DNA of 36,423 nucleotides from Gammaproteobacteria bacterium. Lineage in GTDB: Bacteria; Pseudomonadota; Gammaproteobacteria; Thiomicrospirales; Thiomicrospiraceae. Made by a program: the position numbers and the translations under genes. The notes below the pieces were generated by a model. That model did not search any database. It worked only from the letters and a program-made list of their open reading frames with translations, and had not been told where the DNA came from. Shown in pieces: positions 4,728 through 35,912 of the stretch. Position 1 is the stretch's first letter. Each line of letters begins with the position of its first letter. The DNA lies in assembly GCA_014763665.1 (NCBI GenBank), contig JACXUY010000013.1:1-36423 (forward strand), written 5' to 3'.

Positions 4728-5645
4728 CTAAGAAACCGGTTTACTTTGCACGCTCGGAGCGGGTGCTTCATTCACTTCAATGCTCATGGGCAAATCTGCA
4801 CCATCGTACTCATCGAGCCTGTTTTCGCGCATGATTTTCAACAGAAAATCAATGTAACGACTGCCCAACTCTGAATAGTTCAACAAGGTCTTTGCTAACG
4901 CCAACCCCGAGGGCACATCACCAATTAATCGATGACGCATGCGCTCAGCACGTGCCGCGCGATAAGCGCCCTTGGTATTGATTAAGCGCATGTAAAAAGC
5001 AATCGAATCATTCACGTCAACAAAACGTCGAAACTCACCTGGCCCGCCATTAAAAGGCACACCACAACCAGGTTTGAAGCACATAATGCCGAAGAAATTA
5101 TGTGCATCTTTAGCCAAACGAGACGTACCCCAACCCGACTCTACCGCCGCTTGAGTGAGCACTAACGAGGGCGGAATGGCATCAACACGATGCAATAGAT
5201 TCTGCCAAAAAGACAAATCAAACCCTTTATTGCCCACATCAACTTCATAATCAATGGCAATATTAACCAACCATTCTTTATGTTTCAGCGATAACCGATT
5301 TTGTTGTGACAATCCATATAAATGAACAGCCTCGCGTCTTACCGATAAAATGCGCTCATTTTCTTGAGCAATCAATGGCAATAACCAAGCAATAAAGGTC
5401 TGCTTACGATCATCTGATAAGCTGATGGCAGAAAAATTAGGCGCTGGAATCAGGGTTACCTGCAATCCAGAAGCATCATCGCTTTCTGCTTCATCAAATC
5501 TCAGCGTTTCTTGAGCAATGGGTTCATTGCTCAGCTCAGCAAGGGGCTGTACCGGTTCAGGCCAAGACAACCACCAAAGTGAAAGCGCCAACACTACCGC
5601 TAAGTAGGGAGATGCAGCGAACCAACAAGACCAACAGGATTGCAT
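4728..5645 (-). CDS. Bax-like glucosaminidase domain protein
   Basis: 305 residues. An N-terminal membrane anchor (about residues 12-28, AVVLALSLWWLSW) is followed by a variable linker and a glucosaminidase domain (about 120-285). The catalytic region is SLVLTQAAVESGWGTSRLAK with the general acid Glu169, then AHNFFGIMCF and the tyrosine-rich end NYSELGSRYIDFL. The family cleaves N-acetylglucosamine-containing peptidoglycan strands in the periplasm and is related to E. coli Bax. It is the last gene of the phnN-safE-bax run, 1 nt downstream of the membrane protein. The C-terminal tail (EVNEAPAPSVQSKPVS) is unstructured. Confidence 0.85.
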   Translation of the reverse strand: MQSCWSCWFAASPYLAVVLALSLWWLSWPEPVQPLAELSNEPIAQETLRFDEAESDDASGLQVTLIPAPNFSAISLSDDRKQTFIAWLLPLIAQENERILSVRREAVHLYGLSQQNRLSLKHKEWLVNIAIDYEVDVGNKGFDLSFWQNLLHRVDAIPPSLVLTQAAVESGWGTSRLAKDAHNFFGIMCFKPGCGVPFNGGPGEFRRFVDVNDSIAFYMRLINTKGAYRAARAERMRHRLIGDVPSGLALAKTLLNYSELGSRYIDFLLKIMRENRLDEYDGADLPMSIEVNEAPAPSVQSKPVS

Positions 5646-6354: not shown

Positions 6355-6931
6355 CTAATAACTCGCTAGTGGTCTCTTCCCTAAAATCGCCTTGAAGGTA
6401 GGTTATAAAGTGCTGCACCGAGTCGGTTAAAGCGCCAGAATTGTCAATTACCAGCGCATCGTCAGGTGGTACAAAGGCTTTTGCTCGCTCCAATCTTTCT
6501 TGGATTTGTTGTTCATTTTCACGTCCCCGCGCGCGCAACCGTTGTGCCAACACGCTCGGCTCGCAATGCACCCACACTGGGATCAGTTTAATGCCATCTT
6601 GCGCACAAATACGCGCCACTTCAGGCAAAGCCTGACGCGAGCCGTTCACCACCACACGAATACCTGCCTGTAACCACTGTCGAACTTCTGTTCCGACGGC
6701 ATAGTTTAACTGGTGCGATTGCCAACTCAACCAAAATAATCCCAAACACTTTCTCTGTGCGAACTCCGCATCCAACAGTTGAACGAAGTTTTCCGAAGTA
6801 TCCACGTTAGAACGCGTAATATAACGATGCGCAAACAAGATTGACTTGCCTGCCAAAACCACACGCGCTGCCTGCATTAAAGCGTCTTTGCCTGCTCCAG
6901 AAGCACCAACAACGTAAAATAAGCGACCCAT
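6344..6931 (-). CDS. phnN: Ribose 1,5-bisphosphate phosphokinase
   Basis: 195 residues of the guanylate-kinase-like P-loop fold. It has GASGAGKD (residues 9-16) binding ATP, HRYITR for substrate, and a late RxxxRGRENE / RLERAKAF lid region. PhnN phosphorylates ribose 1,5-bisphosphate to PRPP in phosphonate breakdown or salvage. No C-P lyase genes are seen here, so this looks like the stand-alone form. I chose the ATG at 6929-6931, with GGGAG 9 nt upstream, over an in-frame GTG at 6935-6937. It diverges from ppk1 across about 180 nt. Confidence 0.85.
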   Translation of the reverse strand: MGRLFYVVGASGAGKDALMQAARVVLAGKSILFAHRYITRSNVDTSENFVQLLDAEFAQRKCLGLFWLSWQSHQLNYAVGTEVRQWLQAGIRVVVNGSRQALPEVARICAQDGIKLIPVWVHCEPSVLAQRLRARGRENEQQIQERLERAKAFVPPDDALVIDNSGALTDSVQHFITYLQGDFREETTSELLDVD

Positions 6932-12078: not shown

Positions 12079-12873
12079 ATGAACCTAAAACGCCTGACCG
12101 CTGCCTTGGTACTTTCGTTGCTCACACTGCAAGGTTGCTCTACCAGCCCGTTGGGACGTTCTCAATTGTTGATGCAAAATGAAGCCAGCTTAGCTGCTTC
12201 GGCGCAACAAGAATATCAAAAAATGAAAAACGAAGTCCCTATCAGCAAGGACAAGGCGCTGACTGCTTATGTCAAGTGTGTAGTCGCCCCTTTAACTAAA
12301 GAGGTGGTGGGTGACAACTGGGAAGTGACGCTGTTTGAATCGGATCAAGTGAACGCCTTTGCCTTACCCGGTGGCAAAATTGGTGTTTACACAGGCATTT
12401 TAAAATTTGCCAACAATCAAGACCGACTGGCTGCAGTCGTCGCTCATGAAATTGCACACGTCCTCTCTCATCATGCTAATGAACGGGTTAGCGCCGCAAC
12501 ACTCGCTAATATTGGCATGGTAGCGCTGGCCATTGCCGGCAGTCGCAATCAAAATACACAATTGGCAGTGGCGGCATTAGGGCTTGGTGTGCAATATGGC
12601 GTGATTATGCCCTACTCGCGCGCTCACGAAACGGAAGCCGACTTACTTGGTTTAGATATCATGGCCAAAGCGGGATTCGACCCGCGTGAAGCCGCGAAAC
12701 TGTGGGAAGCGATGAAAGGCGATCGCAAACAAAGTATTCCCGAATGGATGTCTACCCACCCAAGCGACGATACCCGCATTACCAGCTTGCGCGAGCGAGA
12801 AGATGAAGCCCTGTATCAGATGAAAGCCGCCCATGCCGCTGGCAAAAAACCGCGCTGCGTCATGCCGAAATAG
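12079..12873 (+). CDS. M48 family zinc metalloprotease, lipoprotein
   Basis: 264 residues. The signal peptide has a lipobox (SLLTLQGC, Cys20), so it is membrane-anchored in the periplasm. The M48 catalytic domain has VVAHEIAHVLSHHANERVSA (zinc ligands His123 and His127, catalytic Glu124) and the third ligand in RAHETEADLLGLDIM. STHPSDDTRI is the conserved substrate-side motif. It resembles LoiP/BepA-type outer-membrane quality-control proteases, without the TPR part of BepA. I prefer the ATG at 12079 (GGGA 9 nt upstream) to the in-frame ATG at 12064, which lacks a ribosome site and would only add MGLLH. Confidence 0.88.
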   Translation: MNLKRLTAALVLSLLTLQGCSTSPLGRSQLLMQNEASLAASAQQEYQKMKNEVPISKDKALTAYVKCVVAPLTKEVVGDNWEVTLFESDQVNAFALPGGKIGVYTGILKFANNQDRLAAVVAHEIAHVLSHHANERVSAATLANIGMVALAIAGSRNQNTQLAVAALGLGVQYGVIMPYSRAHETEADLLGLDIMAKAGFDPREAAKLWEAMKGDRKQSIPEWMSTHPSDDTRITSLREREDEALYQMKAAHAAGKKPRCVMPK

Positions 12874-12874
12874 G

Positions 12875-12930
12875 GAAAGTCTGAATAATGCGTTTCGCTT
12901 CTCATTCAAACTTTCTATGTTCGTTTTTTT
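12875..12930 (+). terminator. Terminator-like hairpin after the M48 gene
   Basis: The stem GAAAGT-c-TGAAT (12875-12886) pairs with ATTCA-a-ACTTTC (12904-12915) with one mismatch and a 17-nt loop, followed after 8 nt by a run of seven T. The long loop lowers confidence. Confidence 0.45.
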
Positions 12931-13000
12931 GAGTGGTTAGAAGGGCATAAATCAATCTGTTACAGGTTGTTTTGGCGAAACCCTTCCCCCACACCCCCGT
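12931..13000. repeat. Dispersed intergenic repeat, copy A
   Basis: GGTTAGAAGGGCATAAATCA continuing into a pyrimidine-rich CCCTTCCCCC stretch resembles sequences at 21151-21220 and 33570-33626. Only this half of the repeat, without the preceding hairpin, is present here. No coding frame is seen. Confidence 0.45.
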
Positions 13001-13052
13001 CCCCTTTGTCTTTTTCAGATGTTCCATAAGTCAATGCAGTTATCTTTGTCTG

Positions 13053-16471: not shown

Positions 16472-16508
16472 TATACCAATTGGTATATTATTTATGGTAT
16501 ATTATTTA
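16472..16508 (+). promoter_or_regulatory. Palindrome plus tandem 14-bp repeat upstream of the AAA ATPase
   Basis: The 16-bp perfect palindrome TATACCAATTGGTATA (16472-16487) overlaps the first of two exact head-to-tail copies of TGGTATATTATTTA (16481-16494 and 16495-16508). A weaker third copy starts at 16458. The repeats contain -10-like TATATT steps and end 24 nt before the ATPase start, so this looks like an operator over a promoter in the ATPase/selO divergent region. Confidence 0.5.
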
Positions 16509-16532
16509 CATACTAAATACAGGAATAGCATC

Positions 16533-17630
16533 ATGTCATCATCGCCCTTTCCCTACGACAAACTTTCTGTCGGCGACTCCTTTATCGCCAGAGATAAAGA
16601 TCTGGCTAAACTACAAGCATCCGTAGAGGCTGGCACCAACCTACTCATTTACTCGAAAAGACGCATGGGAAAAAGCTCTCTCATCAAACAGTTTTTTCAA
16701 TCGCAAACGTCGACCATTTGTATTTACGCCGATGTTTACGATGTAACCAAAAAAGAAGATTTTGCACGACTGTTGTTGAAAAGCCTGTCTCATGTCAAGC
16801 TCAACAAGTCGGTGCTTAAAAACCTTGCCGATCTATTTAAGCGTTTGCGCTTTGAAATGACCATTGACCCCAAAAATGATAAATACGGTATTCGCCCCAC
16901 GCTATCCTCGCTCACTTTCGACGAAATGATGCAAGACTTCTTTGCTGCCATTCAGGGCTTATCTGAAAAACAGCCTGTTGTCATCGCTATTGATGAATTT
17001 CAGCAAATCGCCCACATTAAAGATACCCACCTCGATGCTTACTTGCGCAAATTTATTCAGGAACGTAACACAAATGTATCCTTTATTTTTGCTGGCTCAA
17101 AACGTCATCTGTTAACCTCGCTGTTTGCTTACAAAGCACCATTATTCGAGATGGCAAATCATTATGCGTTAACACCCTTGGCTTTTGAAGATATTCGCGC
17201 TTACGTTTCACAGCATTTGAACATCAGCGACGACGACCTAGGCTACTTATGCACAGACATTGCCGACAATGAAACCAAAATGATGCAGCATCTACTGCAC
17301 CTACTCTATGTAGGCAAGGCGAAAACGCCCATTAGGCGCGAAATGATCGACCAAGCCCTTGATGAAATTCTGAACGAAAAAGAAGCTACCTTTAGACTGT
17401 TATTCGATGTACTCAACACAAACCAAAGAATTGCCATGAAAGCAGTGGTTAACGCCGGCCGCAAGCTCTATTCTGAAGCGGTTTTACAGCAACTTGGCAT
17501 CACTAAATCGGCATTACAAAGTGCCATTCGCCAGTTATTTGCACGCGAACTCATCGACAAAGAGAACGAACGCTACTTTATACCCGATAGGTCGCTAGAG
17601 CTTTGGCTGGGGAGAATGATGGCTTCTTGA
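16533..17630 (+). CDS. AAA ATPase of the archaeal-type (PF01637-like) family
   Basis: 365 residues. The ATPase core has an unusual Walker A, YSKRRMGKSSL (residues 40-50), Walker B VVIAIDEFQQI and a sensor-like VSFIFAGSKRHLL. The C-terminal part is a winged-helix (QRIAMKAVVNAGRK through ALQSAIRQLFARELIDKE). Such proteins are common in archaea and in accessory bacterial DNA; the role is unknown, possibly in mobile-element or defence regulation. The ATG at 16533 has AGGAA 8 nt upstream; an ATG at 16494 would start inside the repeats. It stands at the left end of an accessory island and is preceded by the palindrome and tandem repeats. Confidence 0.75.
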   Translation: MSSSPFPYDKLSVGDSFIARDKDLAKLQASVEAGTNLLIYSKRRMGKSSLIKQFFQSQTSTICIYADVYDVTKKEDFARLLLKSLSHVKLNKSVLKNLADLFKRLRFEMTIDPKNDKYGIRPTLSSLTFDEMMQDFFAAIQGLSEKQPVVIAIDEFQQIAHIKDTHLDAYLRKFIQERNTNVSFIFAGSKRHLLTSLFAYKAPLFEMANHYALTPLAFEDIRAYVSQHLNISDDDLGYLCTDIADNETKMMQHLLHLLYVGKAKTPIRREMIDQALDEILNEKEATFRLLFDVLNTNQRIAMKAVVNAGRKLYSEAVLQQLGITKSALQSAIRQLFARELIDKENERYFIPDRSLELWLGRMMAS

Positions 17631-17936: not shown

Positions 17937-18146
17937 ATGGCGCAATTTCAACTTTGTACAAACAAAGATGAACGCTCCTCAGCTGTATACCCCAATTTTA
18001 TTGACGTACAAAATGATTTACTCAATGGGTTAAATACCAGAATGGTGGTTCCACTCACGCCCTTAACGCAGCTTGATAACCTAGCGCCTAGCAGATTATG
18101 CCCAAGCATCCATTTGCCTGCTTCGGAACTGGTGGTTCTAACGTAG
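17937..18146 (+). pseudogene. ccdB: Truncated CcdB toxin, C-terminal third missing
   Basis: 69 residues matching the N-terminal two thirds of CcdB (normally about 101-105 residues): MAQFQLCTNKDERSS, NFIDVQNDLLNGLNTRMVVP and LPASELVVLT, where the frame ends with TAG at 18144-18146. CcdB poisons gyrase through its last residues (Trp-Gly-Ile in the F plasmid protein), which are absent, so toxicity is not expected. The stop ends exactly where the first attC-like site starts (18147), so the loss is tied to the cassette junction. Confidence 0.8.
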
Positions 18147-18207
18147 AGCTAACCGGCGCGCTGCGCGGCTTTATTGCGCAGCATCAAGCTTGAGCGCCGG
18201 GTTAGCG
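18147..18207 (-). other. attC-like integron recombination site 1
   Basis: 61 bp, oriented on the minus strand. The outer simple sites CGCTAAC (R'') and GTTAGCT (R') pair, followed inward by GGCGC/GCGCC and GCTGCGC/GCGCAGC. One unpaired G (18199) and a self-complementary TCAAGCTTGA bulge are seen. This is the layout of an attC folded on its bottom strand. It starts 2 nt after the stop of the cassette gene and runs to the end of the ccdB remnant. Confidence 0.65.
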
Positions 18208-18209
18208 AT

Positions 18210-18620
18210 TTACAAAGCATATTGCTCCAAGTGCTTCAGCGTTTCTTGGCTTATTACATTCATGGAATAGAGGCCATGCTGCAACCAAGACTCTGTATTG
18301 CCAATGTTCGTAGTTTCCAGCAAGTACGAAACCAATGCGTCGTGCGGGTAAATGTACCATTTGCCGTTTTGGTATGGAAAGCAAACAACAAGATGCTTTC
18401 CAAGATACTTTTTGTCCAGAGTCAGTCGACCTTTAAGCTGAACCTTTAGAAAAGTTTCGCCGTCGATGCGTTGAGCGATGAAGTCAGCACCTTGCCAGTC
18501 GTCGGTCAGGCGAAGCGTTACAAAGCCGTAGTCAGCCAAAATAGCTGAAACTTTTTGGAAATTGTAGTTTTCCCGCTGCCGTGAATTCAAATTATCGTAG
18601 GAAATTTTCTGGAGAGCCAT
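18210..18620 (-). CDS. Cassette-encoded PD-(D/E)XK-like protein
   Basis: 136 residues. The centre reads DDWQGADFIAQ then GETFLKVQLKGR: Asp46, then Gln61 and Lys63, a D...(E/Q)xK arrangement of the PD-(D/E)XK nuclease fold. A strand-rich GKHLVVCFPYQNGKWYIYP follows. The N-terminus MALQKISYDNLNSRQRENYN is characteristic of a protein I recall from integron gene cassettes; that recollection is not verified here. The gene ends 2 nt before one attC-like site and starts 11 nt after another, as a single-gene cassette should. Nuclease activity is a motif-based inference; no target is known. Confidence 0.7.
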   Translation of the reverse strand: MALQKISYDNLNSRQRENYNFQKVSAILADYGFVTLRLTDDWQGADFIAQRIDGETFLKVQLKGRLTLDKKYLGKHLVVCFPYQNGKWYIYPHDALVSYLLETTNIGNTESWLQHGLYSMNVISQETLKHLEQYAL

Positions 18621-18630
18621 GATTCTTTAT

Positions 18631-18717
18631 CGCTAACGTTTGCCATAACCGGCAGTGAAGAGCGGTGCGACGAAGACACGCCGCTCTTCACTGTCCGCGT
18701 TGATGGCGTTGTTAGCC
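18631..18717 (-). other. attC-like integron recombination site 2
   Basis: 87 bp, oriented on the minus strand. R'' GGCTAAC (RC of 18711-18717) and R' GTTAGCG (RC of 18631-18637) bound a long inverted repeat: CAGTGAAGAGCGG-c-GTG pairs with CACCGCTCTTCACTG with a single extrahelical base, the hallmark that sets strand choice in attC recombination. It begins 6 nt after the stop of the GIY-YIG gene and ends 10 nt before the start of the next cassette gene. Confidence 0.75.
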
Positions 18718-18723
18718 GTGGTA

Positions 18724-19293
18724 TTAGCGAACGACGGCACGATGTTTCCTTTCCTCGCCGCGGACCATTTTCCCTTCACGCATGAGCAGGCCAAGCACGC
18801 TCCAAGCGAGGTAGTCTTTTGAGCCTCCAGCATAATCGCTTTGAAGGCCGAGAGATTTTGAGGCATCCGAGTTCGTGATTCCTTCTGGGTTTGCTTGGGC
18901 GAGTTCAAGAACCGCAGCCTTTAGAAGTTCAAGCCCAATTTGCGCTTTTTCGATAACGCCAGCGGGAACCGTTAAGTTGCGCCTGGCCTTAGGAGCCGCG
19001 CCAGACGGCATTACCGAATTTGTGAGAAGGCCACCTGTATCTTCCGTGCCGAATGCGGCGATTAGTTCGGCTTCCAGTTTCAGCGCTTGTGCTTCGGTTA
19101 GTTCGTCGGCCAGAACCGCTGTTACGACGTCGTGCCCCTGTTCTTGGATTTCAGCAATGCTCTTTCCCTTGCGGGTTGCGTCCACGCGTAACGTGTGATC
19201 CCAGGCACGATTGCCGGTTCCCTTCCCAATGTAAAAGGGTTTTGCAGGAGAAGATCTTGGATCTTTCAGCGCGTATATGTAGAAGGGATTCAT
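18724..19293 (-). CDS. GIY-YIG (LEM-3-like) nuclease domain protein in a cassette
   Basis: 189 residues. The N-terminal GIY-YIG domain has FYIYALKDPR, then KPFYIGKGTGNRAWDH (Tyr21-Ile-Gly23, Arg29, His33), the catalytic-type glutamate in LKLEAELIAAFG and GGLLTNSV closing the fold. It belongs to the LEM-3-like GIY-YIG group. The C-terminal about 80 residues (VIEKAQIGLELLKAAV to the basic end) look like a winged-helix DNA-binding domain. It is the second cassette of the array, ends next to attC-like site 2 and starts 28 nt downstream of a GTTAGCC half-site. Confidence 0.8.
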   Translation of the reverse strand: MNPFYIYALKDPRSSPAKPFYIGKGTGNRAWDHTLRVDATRKGKSIAEIQEQGHDVVTAVLADELTEAQALKLEAELIAAFGTEDTGGLLTNSVMPSGAAPKARRNLTVPAGVIEKAQIGLELLKAAVLELAQANPEGITNSDASKSLGLQSDYAGGSKDYLAWSVLGLLMREGKMVRGEERKHRAVVR

Positions 19294-19320
19294 TGGGCTT
19301 GGTTCATCCGCGAGAAGAAC

Positions 19321-19356
19321 GGCTAACTATAATTATACGGCACTTTCACCGTATAA
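19321..19356 (-). promoter_or_regulatory. R'-type half-site, hairpin and -10 at the head of the cassette array
   Basis: On the minus strand a hairpin TTATACGG/CCGTATAA (arms 19349-19356 and 19333-19340, 8-nt loop) is followed by GTTAGCC (19321-19327), an R'-like core. TATAAT (19332-19337) lies between them, 39 nt before the GIY-YIG start codon, so the site could also be a promoter for the cassettes. No matching R'' is found upstream, so it is not a full attC. Confidence 0.4.
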
Positions 19357-19445
19357 CATGAATTCAAAACATTCATTACCATTCAATCCCTCAGCGATTC
19401 AAGACCTTAACTTTAATAAGCCGCATAACACGATTCACTAGACCA

Positions 19446-19459
19446 AAATCATAGCATAA
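19446..19459 (-). promoter_or_regulatory. Extended -10 motif like those of the coiled-coil genes
   Basis: AAATCATAGCATAA matches the 14-mer TTATCATAGCATAA of the coiled-coil gene promoters at 12 of 14 positions and reads TGCTATGAT on the minus strand. The next minus-strand gene is the GIY-YIG cassette about 150 nt away. The 126 nt between this motif and the gene hold only the hairpin/half-site; nothing else is seen in 19360-19484. Confidence 0.3.
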
Positions 19460-19484
19460 GCCTTAACGACAATAAACAACCCAA

Positions 19485-19901
19485 CTACCCCCCTTCCCAA
19501 GGATTAAACAAAGTCACTGGCAAGTCGATAAAATCTTTGGTATTTCTGGTAACGAGCGTTAAGTTATGCTCAATAGCGGTTGCGGCAAGTAGGCTATCAA
19601 TGGCGGGTAAAGGTCTTTTAGCGGTTGCCATGAGCTTGCCCCAGTGATCTGCTGTTGCTGCTGTCACTGGCAATATTCTGCCGATAAAGAAAACGGGTAA
19701 TTCAGCTTCTAACCAATCCGACAGTCTTTGACGCCGATTCACATCGTCAAGCGCATTAATCCCTTTTCGTATTTCACCCAAGGTTAAGACACTTAAATAT
19801 AACGTAGACGAGGGTTTAGATTCTAGCCAAGCCACCAAACCAGCGTGAGGCGTTTTTCGTTTGAGTTCTGATAGCACATTGGTGTCGAGTAAATAGCTCA
19901 A
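19485..19901 (-). CDS. vapC: VapC/FitB-like PIN-domain toxin
   Basis: 138 residues of the PIN fold: MSYLLDTNVLSELKRK (Asp6 first acidic ligand), LSVLTLGEIRKGI (second acidic residue), LPAIDSLLAATAIEHNLTLV (third) and TRNTKDFIDL (fourth). These metal-dependent RNases usually cut tRNA or rRNA. The start overlaps the antitoxin stop by 4 nt (ATGA-type coupling). The pair sits at the right edge of the accessory island. Confidence 0.92.
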   Translation of the reverse strand: MSYLLDTNVLSELKRKTPHAGLVAWLESKPSSTLYLSVLTLGEIRKGINALDDVNRRQRLSDWLEAELPVFFIGRILPVTAATADHWGKLMATAKRPLPAIDSLLAATAIEHNLTLVTRNTKDFIDLPVTLFNPWEGG

Positions 19902-20143
19902 AACTCGATATCCCTTGTTAGGCTGGCATCTCGCTCAAACGCAACATCATCACCATAAAAAGGCGACTGTTTCATAAAGCTCACCAAGGATTGATGATTA
20001 TGCGATAGCCTTTCAAAGGTATCACGAGACACAACCACCGCTACCGACTTGCCATGATAAGTAATGCTCTGCGGTTCAAACTGTGAACACTTAACCAACT
20101 CCGACATACGCGCTTTCGCATCTTGAATTTGCCATGCTTGCAT
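19898..20143 (-). CDS. Phd/YefM-type antitoxin
   Basis: 81 residues. The N-terminal MQAWQIQDAKARMSELVKCS and ITYHGKSVAVVVSRDTFERL are the Phd/YefM DNA-binding fold; the C-terminus (DASLTRDIEF) is acidic and likely wraps the VapC toxin. Encoded upstream of and overlapping the toxin. GGGGCGG lies just upstream of the ATG. An inverted repeat over the promoter region fits autorepression by the pair. Confidence 0.9.
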   Translation of the reverse strand: MQAWQIQDAKARMSELVKCSQFEPQSITYHGKSVAVVVSRDTFERLSHNHQSLVSFMKQSPFYGDDVAFERDASLTRDIEF

Positions 20144-20157
20144 AAACCGCCCCCTAT

Positions 20158-20206
20158 TTCTGACCTCTCTAGTCAGAATTATAGCTTAAAGTTCAATTTA
20201 GGTAAA
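20158..20206 (-). promoter_or_regulatory. Promoter and operator of the Phd/VapC operon
   Basis: Minus-strand TTTACC (20201-20206) and TATAAT (20178-20183) are 17 nt apart. Immediately downstream a perfect 7-bp inverted repeat TTCTGAC (20158-20164) / GTCAGAA (20172-20178) with a 7-nt spacer overlaps the -10, a typical toxin-antitoxin operator. Confidence 0.6.
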
Positions 20207-20222
20207 TGAACCAGCCACTTAA

Positions 20223-20276
20223 CCCATGAAACTCAGGCTCAGATAACGTACAATAGCGGCATTAATAAGGAATAGC
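20223..20276 (+). repeat. queF leader, copied again before pyrB
   Basis: The queF leader with AGATAACGTACAATAGCG (20241-20258, contains -10-like TACAAT) and AAGGA 6 nt before the ATG is repeated with changes at 23679-23741, sharing that 18-mer exactly. Confidence 0.65.
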
Positions 20277-20277
20277 C

Positions 20278-21093
20278 ATGTCTGCGATTGAACAAAGCCA
20301 ACTCGGTCATCACACCCACTATCCCACCCATTACGACCCCAGCCTGTTGTTTGCTGTGCCGCGCGCGCTCAATCGGGTGCAGTTGTCGCCTTCGCCCATG
20401 CAGGGTGTCGATGTGTGGACGGCTTATGAGCTTTCGTGGTTGAACACTCAAGGACTACCGCAAGTGGCGATTGCCGAGTTTAGCATTCCTGCCTCCAGCC
20501 CGAACCTAATCGAGTCTAAATCCTTTAAGCTTTACCTCAACTCGCTTAATGCGCATAAGTTCAGCGATAGCCACGCCATGATGACGCAAGTGACGCATGA
20601 TTTATCGGGCTGTGCGGGCGCGATGGTGACCATGCGACTGCATGATGTCAACAACCTCAGCATCGGGCAGTTGCCGGGGCAATGTTTAGATAAACTCCCT
20701 GTCAATATTAATAGCTACACGCCCGACCCAGCCTTATTGAGTCTTGACCCACATCTGTCTGGCGATGGCTGCTGGCACAGTCATTTGCTCAAATCCAACT
20801 GTCCTGTCACCAACCAACCCGACTGGGGCAGCCTGGTGATTGAAATGCGTGCACGCAAATTGCCTAAAGCAGAAAGCTTGTTGGCCTATATTGTTTCCTA
20901 TCGTGACCACCAAGATTTTCATGAACACTGTGTTGAAAGTATTTACAGCGATTTATGGCACGCTTTTCAGCCAGAACGCTTAACCGTTTACGCCCGTTAT
21001 GTGCGTCGTGGTGGGCTGGATATTAATCCTTGGCGTTGTCACGAAAAGCACGCCCCTACTTGGCCAGTCATGCCACGCTTAGCGCGTCAGTAA
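20278..21093 (+). CDS. queF: NADPH-dependent 7-cyano-7-deazaguanine reductase
   Basis: 271 residues, the long (two-module, E. coli-like) QueF. It reduces preQ0 nitrile to the amine preQ1 in queuosine biosynthesis in the cytoplasm. The NADPH-binding module has ESKSFKLYLNS (family motif). The catalytic module has LKSNCPVTNQPDWG with Cys175, which forms the thioimide, and Asp182, at the same 7-residue spacing as in E. coli, followed by VSYRDHQDFHEHCVE. AAGGA precedes the ATG. It is followed by a hairpin terminator; no other queuosine gene is nearby. Confidence 0.96.
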   Translation: MSAIEQSQLGHHTHYPTHYDPSLLFAVPRALNRVQLSPSPMQGVDVWTAYELSWLNTQGLPQVAIAEFSIPASSPNLIESKSFKLYLNSLNAHKFSDSHAMMTQVTHDLSGCAGAMVTMRLHDVNNLSIGQLPGQCLDKLPVNINSYTPDPALLSLDPHLSGDGCWHSHLLKSNCPVTNQPDWGSLVIEMRARKLPKAESLLAYIVSYRDHQDFHEHCVESIYSDLWHAFQPERLTVYARYVRRGGLDINPWRCHEKHAPTWPVMPRLARQ

Positions 21094-21101
21094 AAGGGCA
21101 C

Positions 21102-21134
21102 CGCTAAAAACCCCACTTCGTGGGATTATTAGCG
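21102..21134 (+). terminator. Symmetric hairpin after queF
   Basis: CGCTAA-(4 nt)-CCCAC-ttc-GTGGG-(4 nt)-TTAGCG forms a two-part stem with a symmetric internal loop, 8 nt after the queF stop. No long T-run follows (TCCCCAAGTTTATTT). A related hairpin occurs upstream of gspK, so it may be part of the dispersed repeat as well as a terminator. Confidence 0.55.
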
Positions 21135-21150
21135 TCCCCAAGTTTATTTG

Positions 21151-21220
21151 ACCTCTGGTGGAAGAGATTAACTCAATGGCTTGTATGATTTTTCTCTACA
21201 CCCCTTCCCCCAGTACACCC
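21151..21220. repeat. Dispersed intergenic repeat, copy B
   Basis: ACCTCTGGTGGAAGAGATTA followed by a CCCCTTCCCCC tract lines up with 33570-33626 (ACCTCTGGTAGAAGGGCTTA) and 12931-13000. In this copy and the one near gspK the repeat is preceded by a CTAAAAA(C)CCCAC hairpin. No coding frame is visible in 21094-21304. Confidence 0.55.
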
Positions 21221-21264
21221 TTCCCATTAGCGTTTTTAGAGGTCATCAAATAACCAAAAGCTGT

Positions 21265-29044: not shown

Positions 29045-29488
29045 TTATGGCTGCACAGCGGGTAAATAACGAATGGCAGCAACCACTGCGCCACCAATGG
29101 CTAAGCTGGTGCTAAATGACCAAACCATAAATCGATCTATGCGTGTTGTGAGCGCCTCAAAACGTTTGTCCATATCTTTACGTAACTCGATCATTTCCTG
29201 ACGCAATTCCTTGTTCAGCTCTGACATTTCCTGACGCAATTCCTTGTTCAGCTCTGACATTTCCTGACGCAATTCCTTGTTCAGCTCTGACATTTCCTGA
29301 CGCAATTCCTTGTTCAGCTCCGCCATTTCATTGCGCAAGTCGACATCTAAGTGGACAAAATGATTCGTTTGCGCTTTAAGCATCAGAATCATCATTTCTT
29401 CGCTCGTTAGTTTTTCTTTGTCGATCTTAAGAATGATCTCTCTGCTTTTGTTATCCAGCCATGTGTCAAATATATCATTTTCGAACAT
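29045..29488 (-). CDS. Coiled-coil protein with C-terminal membrane anchor and 11-residue repeats
   Basis: 147 residues. N-terminal helical region (DIFDTWLDNKSREIILKI), then a coiled coil built of NKELRQEMSEL units repeated four times, then DKRFEALTTRIDRFMVWSFS and a transmembrane helix (LAIGGAVVAAIRYL) at the very C-terminus. 11-residue periodicity gives a right-handed (hendecad) coil. The layout matches the DUF1640-type genes at 33648-34308 but the N-terminus differs. ATG at 29486-29488 has AGGAG 7 nt upstream. It shares the extended -10 motif of that group. Function unknown. Confidence 0.75.
   Translation of the reverse strand: MFENDIFDTWLDNKSREIILKIDKEKLTSEEMMILMLKAQTNHFVHLDVDLRNEMAELNKELRQEMSELNKELRQEMSELNKELRQEMSELNKELRQEMIELRKDMDKRFEALTTRIDRFMVWSFSTSLAIGGAVVAAIRYLPAVQP
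29193..29324 (-). repeat. Four tandem 33-bp repeats
   Basis: Units at 29193, 29226, 29259 and 29292; the first three are essentially identical and the last differs near its end. The repeats keep frame and encode the coiled coil, so unit number can change by slippage without breaking the gene. Confidence 0.95.
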
Positions 29489-29513
29489 GTCCATGCTCCT
29501 GTAATTTATGTTC

Positions 29514-33569: not shown

Positions 33570-33626
33570 ACCTCTGGTAGAAGGGCTTAAATCAAGCAGT
33601 TATATGCATGATTTGGCGCATCCTTA
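33570..33626. repeat. Dispersed intergenic repeat, copy C
   Basis: ACCTCTGGTAGAAGGGCTTA then AATCAAGCAGTTATATGCAT; related to copies at 12931-13000 and 21151-21220. It lies between gspK and the first DUF1640-like gene. Confidence 0.55.
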
Positions 33627-33755
33627 ACCCTAGGCTTAGAAACAGGGTTAGTTAATCCACTTGACAACAGCAACAACCAAGCCTGCAATAGCGAAAGTTT
33701 GCAGCATCATGGCTCTAAAAATATCGGCTTTCATTTCTGCCATGTCTTTTTTTAA
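33621..33755 (-). repeat. Long direct repeat, copy 1 (3' end of a DUF1640-like gene)
   Basis: About 135 bp nearly identical (about four to five differences) to 34012-34146. It covers a hairpin AACCCT/AGGGTT at the gene end and the last about 35 codons of the coiled-coil gene. Confidence 0.9.
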
Positions 33756-33959: not shown

Positions 33960-34011
33960 AACAGCCTCCAAAACATCATTCGCTTACCGTAACACAAAAC
34001 CCACCCTGCCA

Positions 34012-34146
34012 TCCTTTACCCTAGGCTTAGAAACAGGGTTAGTTCATCCACTTGACAACAGCAACAACCAAGCCTGCAATAGCGAAAGTTTGTAGCATCA
34101 TGGCTCTAAAAATATCGGCTTTCATTTCAGCCATGTCTTTTTTTAA
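34012..34146 (-). repeat. Long direct repeat, copy 2 (3' end of a DUF1640-like gene)
   Basis: Second copy of the 33621-33755 sequence, placed identically at the end of the neighbouring paralogue. The protein ends are the same except for the penultimate residue (KWIN versus KWMN). Confidence 0.9.
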
Positions 34147-35276: not shown

Positions 35277-35912
35277 TTATGCCGGCACAAATCGGATAAT
35301 GGCATAAAAGAGTGCCATGATAGCCGTTAGGTAGCTGACCGTTCTCATGGTCTGTTTGCCCATTTCTTTGGTCAGTTTTAATTCCACGTCTTTAATTTCT
35401 AAACGTGTTTTCTCGATTTCGCCACTTAACCGCAGTTCGGTTTCTTTAATTTCGCCACTTAACCGCAGTTCGGTTTCCTTCGTTTCAGCACGCAAAGCTT
35501 CAATACGTTCGTTTGTCTTTCCGATTTCGCCACGTGTCTTTTCGATTTCACCCATTAACCGCAGTTCGGTTTCTTTAATTTCGCCACGTGTCTTTTCGAT
35601 TTCACCCATTAGGCGCAGTTCGGTTTCTTTAATTTCACCGCGTGTCTTTTCGATTTCACCCATTAGGCGCAGTTCGGTTTCTTTAATTTCACCGCGTGTC
35701 ATCTCGATCTTGTCAATCAGGCGCAGTTCGGTTTCCGATAAATCTCGCTTGGTGGCGGTATAGGCTAAGTCGGGGTAGTTTTGTTGTACGGTTTCTAAGG
35801 CTTCGGCAATGATTTTGGCACGCTCACGATCATCCGTGCCTGGACGAGACAAGAGATCATAGACTTGAACGCCTAGGTGTTTGGGGTCTAAATAGTGTTG
35901 TGTTTGCATCAT
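35277..35912 (-). CDS. Long tandem-repeat coiled-coil protein with C-terminal membrane anchor
   Basis: 211 residues. An N-terminal globular part (about 1-60, KHLGVQVYDLLSRPGTDDRE, AKIIAEALETVQQNYPDLAY) precedes a coiled coil of 18-residue units (ETELRLMGEIEKTRGEIK, four copies, first degenerate) and 11-residue units (ETELRLSGEIK). A membrane helix near the end (YLTAIMALFYAIIRFV) anchors it. GGGAG lies 8 nt before the ATG. It sits between two 113-bp inverted repeats and has the TTATCTTAGCATAA promoter motif. No family is recognised beyond the coiled coil. Confidence 0.75.
   Translation of the reverse strand: MMQTQHYLDPKHLGVQVYDLLSRPGTDDRERAKIIAEALETVQQNYPDLAYTATKRDLSETELRLIDKIEMTRGEIKETELRLMGEIEKTRGEIKETELRLMGEIEKTRGEIKETELRLMGEIEKTRGEIGKTNERIEALRAETKETELRLSGEIKETELRLSGEIEKTRLEIKDVELKLTKEMGKQTMRTVSYLTAIMALFYAIIRFVPA
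35416..35481 (-). repeat. Two tandem 33-bp repeats in the coiled-coil gene
   Basis: Units at 35416 and 35449 encode the 11-residue ETELRLSGEIK words. Confidence 0.85.
35543..35758 (-). repeat. Four tandem 54-bp repeats in the coiled-coil gene
   Basis: Units at 35543, 35597, 35651 and a degenerate 35705 encode the 18-residue ETELRLMGEIEKTRGEIK word. All keep frame. Confidence 0.9.

What the first reader, a model, noticed from the sequence alone, without database searches (positions are those of the whole stretch)
18147..19327. Integrase-less integron cassette cluster with two nuclease-like cassettes
Two minus-strand genes each end within 2-6 nt of an attC-like structure (61 and 87 bp). Each site has GCTAAC/GTTAGC simple sites, paired arms and an extrahelical base, and a third GTTAGCC half-site stands at the head. 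No integrase is present in the window. Both cassettes encode nuclease-like folds (PD-(D/E)XK-like and GIY-YIG), and toxin-antitoxin genes flank the array, which would fit a small mobile defence or stabilisation store. Seen: the repeats, pairing and gene order. Known: attC architecture. Inferred: the defence role.
Basis: partly seen in the sequence, partly recalled or inferred. Interest (0 to 1): 0.8.

Follow-up and report, generated by a model that had tools for sequence, protein, structure and literature searches.

The report
Relic integron with two nuclease cassettes
Two small nuclease-like genes sit here as genuine integron cassettes in the remains of a dead integron that has lost its recombinase, and the array is joined to the middle of a toxin gene at the exact base where the recombinase would have cut; the kind of system is well known.

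Summary
The core observation holds. The GIY-YIG gene and the PD-(D/E)XK-like gene are real integron cassettes on the minus strand.

attC2 (18631-18717) is canonical: 46.6 bits, E 1.3e-9 with a covariance model built from other genomes. It is the only site in the window better than E 0.3. attC1 is real by homology but decayed. Each cassette's first bases complement its own attC core 7/7. Relatives of both genes are cassettes in unrelated arrays.

The upstream flank (19325-19360) resembles attI of the same bacterial family. The downstream end is fused inside ccdB: homology to intact ccdB stops at the predicted G|TT crossover, and the last third of ccdB is gone. The genome's only intI is a roughly 100-residue pseudogene on another contig, beside its own decayed cassettes.

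Best reading: an intI-less, decayed chromosomal integron fragment whose distal attC was joined to a secondary site in ccdB by past integrase activity. A defence role is plausible but untested. New member of a known kind (CALIN / decayed integron).

The parts
18724..19293 (-). Cassette 1 gene: GIY-YIG nuclease domain (N-terminal) plus a helical, winged-helix-like C-terminal part, 189 aa
   Evidence: PF22945 LEM-3-like GIY-YIG 34.2 bits against cut-off 27; PADLOC PD-T4-3 1e-9 over residues 4-82; conserved YxYAL...FYIGKG, R29, E74, N92 across 10 homologues
18637..19326 (-). Cassette 1 (690 bp), from TTAGCC to the G of the attC2 core
   Evidence: Starts GTTAGCC, own attC R'' is GGCTAAC: 7/7 complementary; Acidithiobacillus copy starts at the same G|TTAGCC
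18631..18717 (-). attC2, canonical 87-bp site of cassette 1
   Evidence: R1 covariance model 46.6 bits, E 1.3e-9; fold z -7.5; 78% identical to a family attC in L011, itself 42.1 bits
18210..18620 (-). Cassette 2 gene: PD-(D/E)XK-like protein, 136 aa, no named family
   Evidence: No Pfam, NCBIfam or PADLOC hit; invariant E17, D46, Q61xK63; AlphaFold pLDDT 86 with best Foldseek hits Hjc resolvases, then EcoRV and PvuII
18142..18636 (-). Cassette 2 (495 bp), from TTAGCG to the G of the attC1 core
   Evidence: Starts GTTAGCG, own attC R'' is CGCTAAC: 7/7 complementary
18136..18207 (-). attC1, decayed site of cassette 2; 3' core GTTAGAA at 18136-18142
19325..19360 (-). attI-like flank upstream of cassette 1
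   Evidence: Profile of attI sites from 12 integrons of the family: the only position of 72,774 in the window to reach its score; 8 of 270,064 overall, 7 of them following AAC in the integron loci
17937..18142 (+). 5' two-thirds of ccdB, cut at the attC1 crossover
   Evidence: PF01845 profile positions 1-66 of 101; intact relatives read CTA ACA CAT CAA where the window reads CTA AC|G TAG; C-terminal part not found in the genome
17691..17936 (+). ccdA antitoxin, complete
   Evidence: PF07362 93 bits, 71/71 positions
19485..20143 (-). phd-vapC toxin-antitoxin pair standing where intI would be expected
   Evidence: PF01850 PIN and PF02604 Phd/YefM; no intI remnant found at 19300-20300

Best explanation
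This is the remnant of a chromosomal integron. An attI-like site, a GIY-YIG cassette and a PD-(D/E)XK-like cassette remain in order. The intI gene that should lie beyond attI is gone, and a phd-vapC pair now follows. The distal end was joined to a secondary integrase site (a GTTAG core, attG type) inside ccdB: a past integrase recombined the G|TT of attC1 with the G|TT of the antisense strand of ccdB, which cut the toxin gene after codon VLT. This most simply happened as a deletion of whatever lay between. The array is now frozen, because the only intI left in the held genome is a short pseudogene on another contig and attC1 has decayed. Shown: cassette structure, boundaries, ccdB truncation, intI relic. 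Inferred: that integrase made the ccdB junction, that the flank is a true attI, and that the two proteins are defence nucleases.
For: Cassettes: attC2 46.6 bits; start and own core complementary 7/7 for both cassettes. The GIY-YIG relative is a cassette in Acidithiobacillus (same G|TTAGCC start, 81% DNA identity, own attC of 54.5 bits, split by inserted DNA) and in G028 (attC at 6661-6730 directly after the gene). The 136-aa protein's relative in G337 lies between two attCs (L099). Strand: all 67 attCs found by R1 in related arrays point away from intI or with their gene. attI. [quoted passage not shown] Decay: intI of about 100 aa with a stop, next to an Hsp20 cassette and an attC of 28 bits on C79. 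The whole 16.4-20.2 kb block is absent in relative G003, where selO and the next gene adjoin.
Against: attC1 is not recovered by the covariance model, and its box-to-core spacing is 7 instead of the usual 8. The attI-like match is short and AT-rich. The other product of the ccdB recombination (the 3' third of ccdB) was not found, so deletion cannot be told from rearrangement plus loss. The assembly has 238 contigs, so missing sequence is possible.
Confidence: 0.68

Rival explanations
1. A plain CALIN made by insertion: circular cassettes were inserted into ccdB at a secondary (attG) site, never next to an attI, and the 3' part of ccdB was later lost by an unrelated deletion; the attI resemblance is chance.
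For: Needs only known attG insertion; ccdB junction is exactly at G|TT; Xanthomonas CALINs occur away from intI (PMC12444791).
Against: The right-hand flank carries no ccdB sequence in any forward frame and scores as attI better than every other window position.
Confidence: 0.22
2. An active, selected defence store: the two nucleases are expressed anti-phage genes kept together by selection, with the flanking toxin-antitoxin genes stabilising them. (A reading of function; not exclusive of the structural explanation.)
For: GIY-YIG part matches PD-T4-3; the 136-aa family lies in Paracoccus plasmids and a viral contig between a MmeI-type restriction enzyme, a helicase and, in Paracoccus, an annotated GIY-YIG nuclease; both reading frames are intact.
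Against: No sigma-70 promoter above background; ccdB is broken; most homologues have no defence context shown; the Paracoccus GIY-YIG protein is not detectably related to P0002.
Confidence: 0.35
3. Assembly chimera: the array was joined to ccdB by misassembly of a metagenome-type genome.
For: 238 contigs, no reads available here.
Against: The junction falls exactly on a recombination core in both sequences, and the block has clean edges against relatives.
Confidence: 0.04
4. Not an integron at all: transcription-terminator hairpins and chance repeats.
For: attC1 alone would be weak.
Against: Covariance E 1.3e-9, matched cores, cassette boundaries conserved in Acidithiobacillus.
Confidence: 0.01

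Closest known systems
[quoted passage not shown] Xanthomonas (PMC12444791)
   Same: Two cassettes with attC, no intI nearby, degraded intI in the lineage, small accessory genes as cargo
   Different: Only one of the two attCs passes the covariance model used here; an attI-like site remains; the distal end is fused inside ccdB
attG / secondary-site recombination by integron integrase (Loot et al. 2024, cited in PMC12444791 and PMC12901181; off-target rearrangements in PMC10127599)
   Same: Junction at G|TT of a GTTRR core inside an unrelated gene
   Different: A natural fossil joined to one side only, with the rest of the target gene missing, not a laboratory event
GIY-YIG cassette of Acidithiobacillus sp. 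YTS05 (L043) and of genome G028 (L012)
   Same: Same gene family (88% and 56% protein identity), own attC; the Acidithiobacillus copy also has the same cassette start
   Different: The Acidithiobacillus copy is split by inserted DNA and carries a different attC; the G028 copy sits in a longer array behind an internally deleted intI
PD-T4-3 (PADLOC) GIY-YIG defence protein
   Same: GIY-YIG N-terminal domain, E 1e-9
   Different: Match covers only profile positions 16-100 of 256; the C-terminal part is not matched

Membership tests
Integron gene cassette | Downstream attC with inverted core and inner boxes | tested here: met
   attC2 46.6 bits; attC1 only by homology of its 3' half
Integron gene cassette | Cassette start complementary to its own attC 5' core | tested here: met
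   GTTAGCC/GGCTAAC and GTTAGCG/CGCTAAC, 7/7 each
Integron gene cassette | Same gene or gene family as a cassette in an independent array | tested here: met
   Cassette 1: Acidithiobacillus L043, homology begins at G|TTAGCC. Cassette 2: family relative between attCs in L099
CALIN | No integron-integrase near the attC cluster | tested here: met
   No TIGR02249 match in the window's contig; none by tblastn at 19300-20300
CALIN | At least two attC sites recognised by a covariance model (IntegronFinder default) | tested here: inconclusive
   One of two recognised with R1; IntegronFinder's own model could not be run
Complete integron | Functional intI | tested here: not met
   Only a truncated pseudogene on C79 in the held genome
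Complete integron | attI next to the first cassette | tested here: inconclusive
   attI-like profile score, best of 72,774 window positions, but short and AT-rich
attG / secondary integrase site | Junction at G|TT of a GTTRR core in the target gene | tested here: met
   ccdB homology ends at CTAA|C; relatives have CTAACA there
attG / secondary integrase site | Recombination by IntI shown | not testable with these tools
   Needs an assay
GIY-YIG nuclease | Domain model above cut-off and catalytic residues | tested here: met
   PF22945 34.2 against 27; residues conserved
PD-(D/E)XK nuclease | Fold and E...D...(E/Q)xK site | tested here: inconclusive
   Best Foldseek hits are Hjc and restriction enzymes but E >= 3e-3 and TM 0.3-0.4; invariant E17, D46, QxK
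PD-T4-3 defence system | Full-length match and phage protection | tested here: inconclusive
   Partial match only; protection not testable here
CcdB toxin | Full-length protein | tested here: not met
   66 of 101 profile positions

The most novel reading that the evidence does not exclude
A natural fossil of off-target integrase activity: in a wild chromosome, integron integrase fused a cassette array to a GTTAG core inside ccdB. This disarmed a gyrase-poison toxin and fixed two nuclease cassettes of a defence kind in place before the integrase itself died.
Probability: 0.4. Interest if true: 0.45.

Novelty: new member of a known kind. Interest (0 to 1): 0.3.

Why it matters
It is a base-resolution natural example of two known steps in integron life: loss of the integrase and joining of an array to a non-integron gene. 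It also places an unnamed PD-(D/E)XK-like family and a GIY-YIG family among integron cargo, and relatives of the first lie inside restriction-modification operons. That makes both cheap candidates for phage-defence tests.

Tried and rejected
Rfam scan of the window: nothing. Strict RYYYAAC...GTTRRRY pattern: missed both sites because their cores are GGCTAAC and CGCTAAC, so it was replaced by a looser scan and then by a covariance model. Chance hairpins: rejected on shuffles and model score. Simple insertion into ccdB: rejected because the other flank carries no ccdB sequence in any forward frame and no ccdB C-terminus was found in the genome (the second search had no positive control). intI remnant under phd-vapC: none. 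Relation of P0002 to the GIY-YIG protein of the Paracoccus operon: not detectable by BLASTP on the 318 residues fetched, which lack that protein's C-terminal end. PDB sequence search with P0001: nothing significant. AlphaFold model of P0002 was poor (pLDDT 61) and was not used. RNAalifold's own structure on A1 was weak, so an attC structure written by hand was used and checked for covariation.

Full report
What is in the sequence. Two minus-strand genes, 18724-19293 (189 aa) and 18210-18620 (136 aa), stand between ccdAB on the left and phd-vapC on the right. The block 16.4-20.2 kb is a variable island: in relative G003, selO and the gene at 20278 lie next to each other, and in the nearest relative G001 a different gene lies upstream of the same anchor.

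attC sites. A scan for YAAC/GTTR cores with paired inner boxes finds only the two reported sites in the window, where shuffled sequence gives 0.2-0.5 hits per window. I took 18 attC sites, most from integrons of related genomes, checked their structure for covariation and built covariance model R1. R1 was not trained on the window. It finds attC2 at 18632-18716 minus with 46.6 bits, E 1.3e-9; the next match in the window has E 0.32. In related arrays R1 finds 67 sites, all on the strand that points away from intI or matches the preceding gene (16 of the 18 training sites were oriented by intI, so for those the strand is by construction). attC2 folds with R and L arms and extrahelical bases, z about -7.5.

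attC1. The 3' half reads CCGGTTAGCTCTACGTTAGAA. The family site L065:1340-1398 ends CCGGTTAGCTTAAACGTTAGGG, and L068 near 5210-5275 shares the hairpin loop GCTGCGCxATAAAGCCGCGCAGC and ends CCGGTGAATTCAAACGTTAAG. The true core is therefore GTTAGAA at 18136-18142. The 5' inner box no longer pairs with the 3' one, and R1 does not find the site at E <= 5. It is a decayed attC.

Cassette test. In a circular cassette the first bases should complement the 5' core of its own attC (established knowledge of cassettes). Cassette 1 starts GTTAGCC and its attC starts GGCTAAC; cassette 2 starts GTTAGCG and its attC starts CGCTAAC: 7/7 for both. The GIY-YIG cassette recurs in Acidithiobacillus sp. YTS05: DNA similarity (81%) begins exactly at G|TTAGCC, right after another cassette's attC-like end; the gene is split by about 3.8 kb of inserted DNA and resumes into an attC of 54.5 bits. 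It recurs in G028, with an attC directly after the gene, in an array behind an internally deleted intI. A relative of the 136-aa protein lies between two attCs in G337 (L099). Other relatives of both genes lack attC in the stretches read, so neither gene family is confined to cassettes.

Flanks. Seventeen of 63 family genomes have intI above cut-off. Their attI sites align to the base at the first cassette. A profile built from 12 of them, without the window, gives the window flank 19325-19360 a score that no other of 72,774 window positions reaches; in the pooled test 8 of 270,064 positions reach it, 7 of which follow AAC, as the real attI sites in the pool do. The other flank is ccdB: PF01845 matches profile positions 1-66 of 101. 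Intact relatives read GTG TTA CTA ACA CAT CAA; the window reads GTG GTT CTA AC|G TAG. The break is at A|C of CTAAC, the complement of G|TT, which PMC10127599 gives as the cleavage point at GTTRRRY secondary sites. The missing end of ccdB is neither at the other flank nor found in the genome. This favours a deletion-type joining of attC1 to ccdB rather than a simple insertion.

Integrase. The genome's only intI is a fragment on contig C79: 77 codons, a stop, and traces to about residue 103, so the catalytic domain is gone. It lies beside an Hsp20 cassette with an attC of 28 bits and an apparently decayed second cassette. No remnant is seen under phd-vapC.

Proteins. P0002 is GIY-YIG by Pfam above cut-off with a partial PADLOC PD-T4-3 match. 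P0001 matches no library but has invariant E17, D46 and Q61xK63 and a confident AlphaFold model whose best PDB matches are Hjc resolvases and restriction enzymes. These scores are modest (E 0.003 and worse). Its relatives in two Paracoccus plasmids and a viral contig lie between a MmeI-type restriction-methylation enzyme and a helicase; in the plasmids a gene annotated as GIY-YIG nuclease follows.

Verdict. Real integron cassettes in a dead, intI-less integron remnant joined to ccdB. CALINs, intI decay, attG recombination and defence cassettes are all known (PMC12444791, PMC10127599, PMC12901181). The ccdB junction is the most interesting part. Mobility today is unlikely; the defence role is an untested inference.

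Noticed in passing
window 12871-13035 and 21095-21249: Two different intergenic stretches of about 150 bp, each matching many places in relatives G001 and G002 at 73-88% identity: dispersed repeats of unknown nature.
   Followed up: no
L013 (contig C79) 5000-6500: A second decayed integron locus in the same genome: intI pseudogene, Hsp20 cassette with attC, and an apparently decayed second cassette.
   Followed up: partly
L101, L102, L107: Operon of MmeI-type restriction enzyme, 136-aa PD-(D/E)XK-like protein and DEAD helicase, followed in Paracoccus plasmids by an annotated GIY-YIG nuclease; looks like an undescribed restriction module.
   Followed up: partly
window 35277-35912 and 29045-29494: ORFs with tandem coiled-coil repeats (MGEIEKTRGEIKETELRL type and MSELNKELRQE type).
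   Followed up: no
window 33619-33755 and 34010-34146: Direct repeat of 137 bp, 97% identical, 391 bp apart.
   Followed up: no
window 16494-17630: AAA-type ATPase ORF in the same variable island as ccdAB and the cassettes; possible toxin-antitoxin or defence gene.
   Followed up: no
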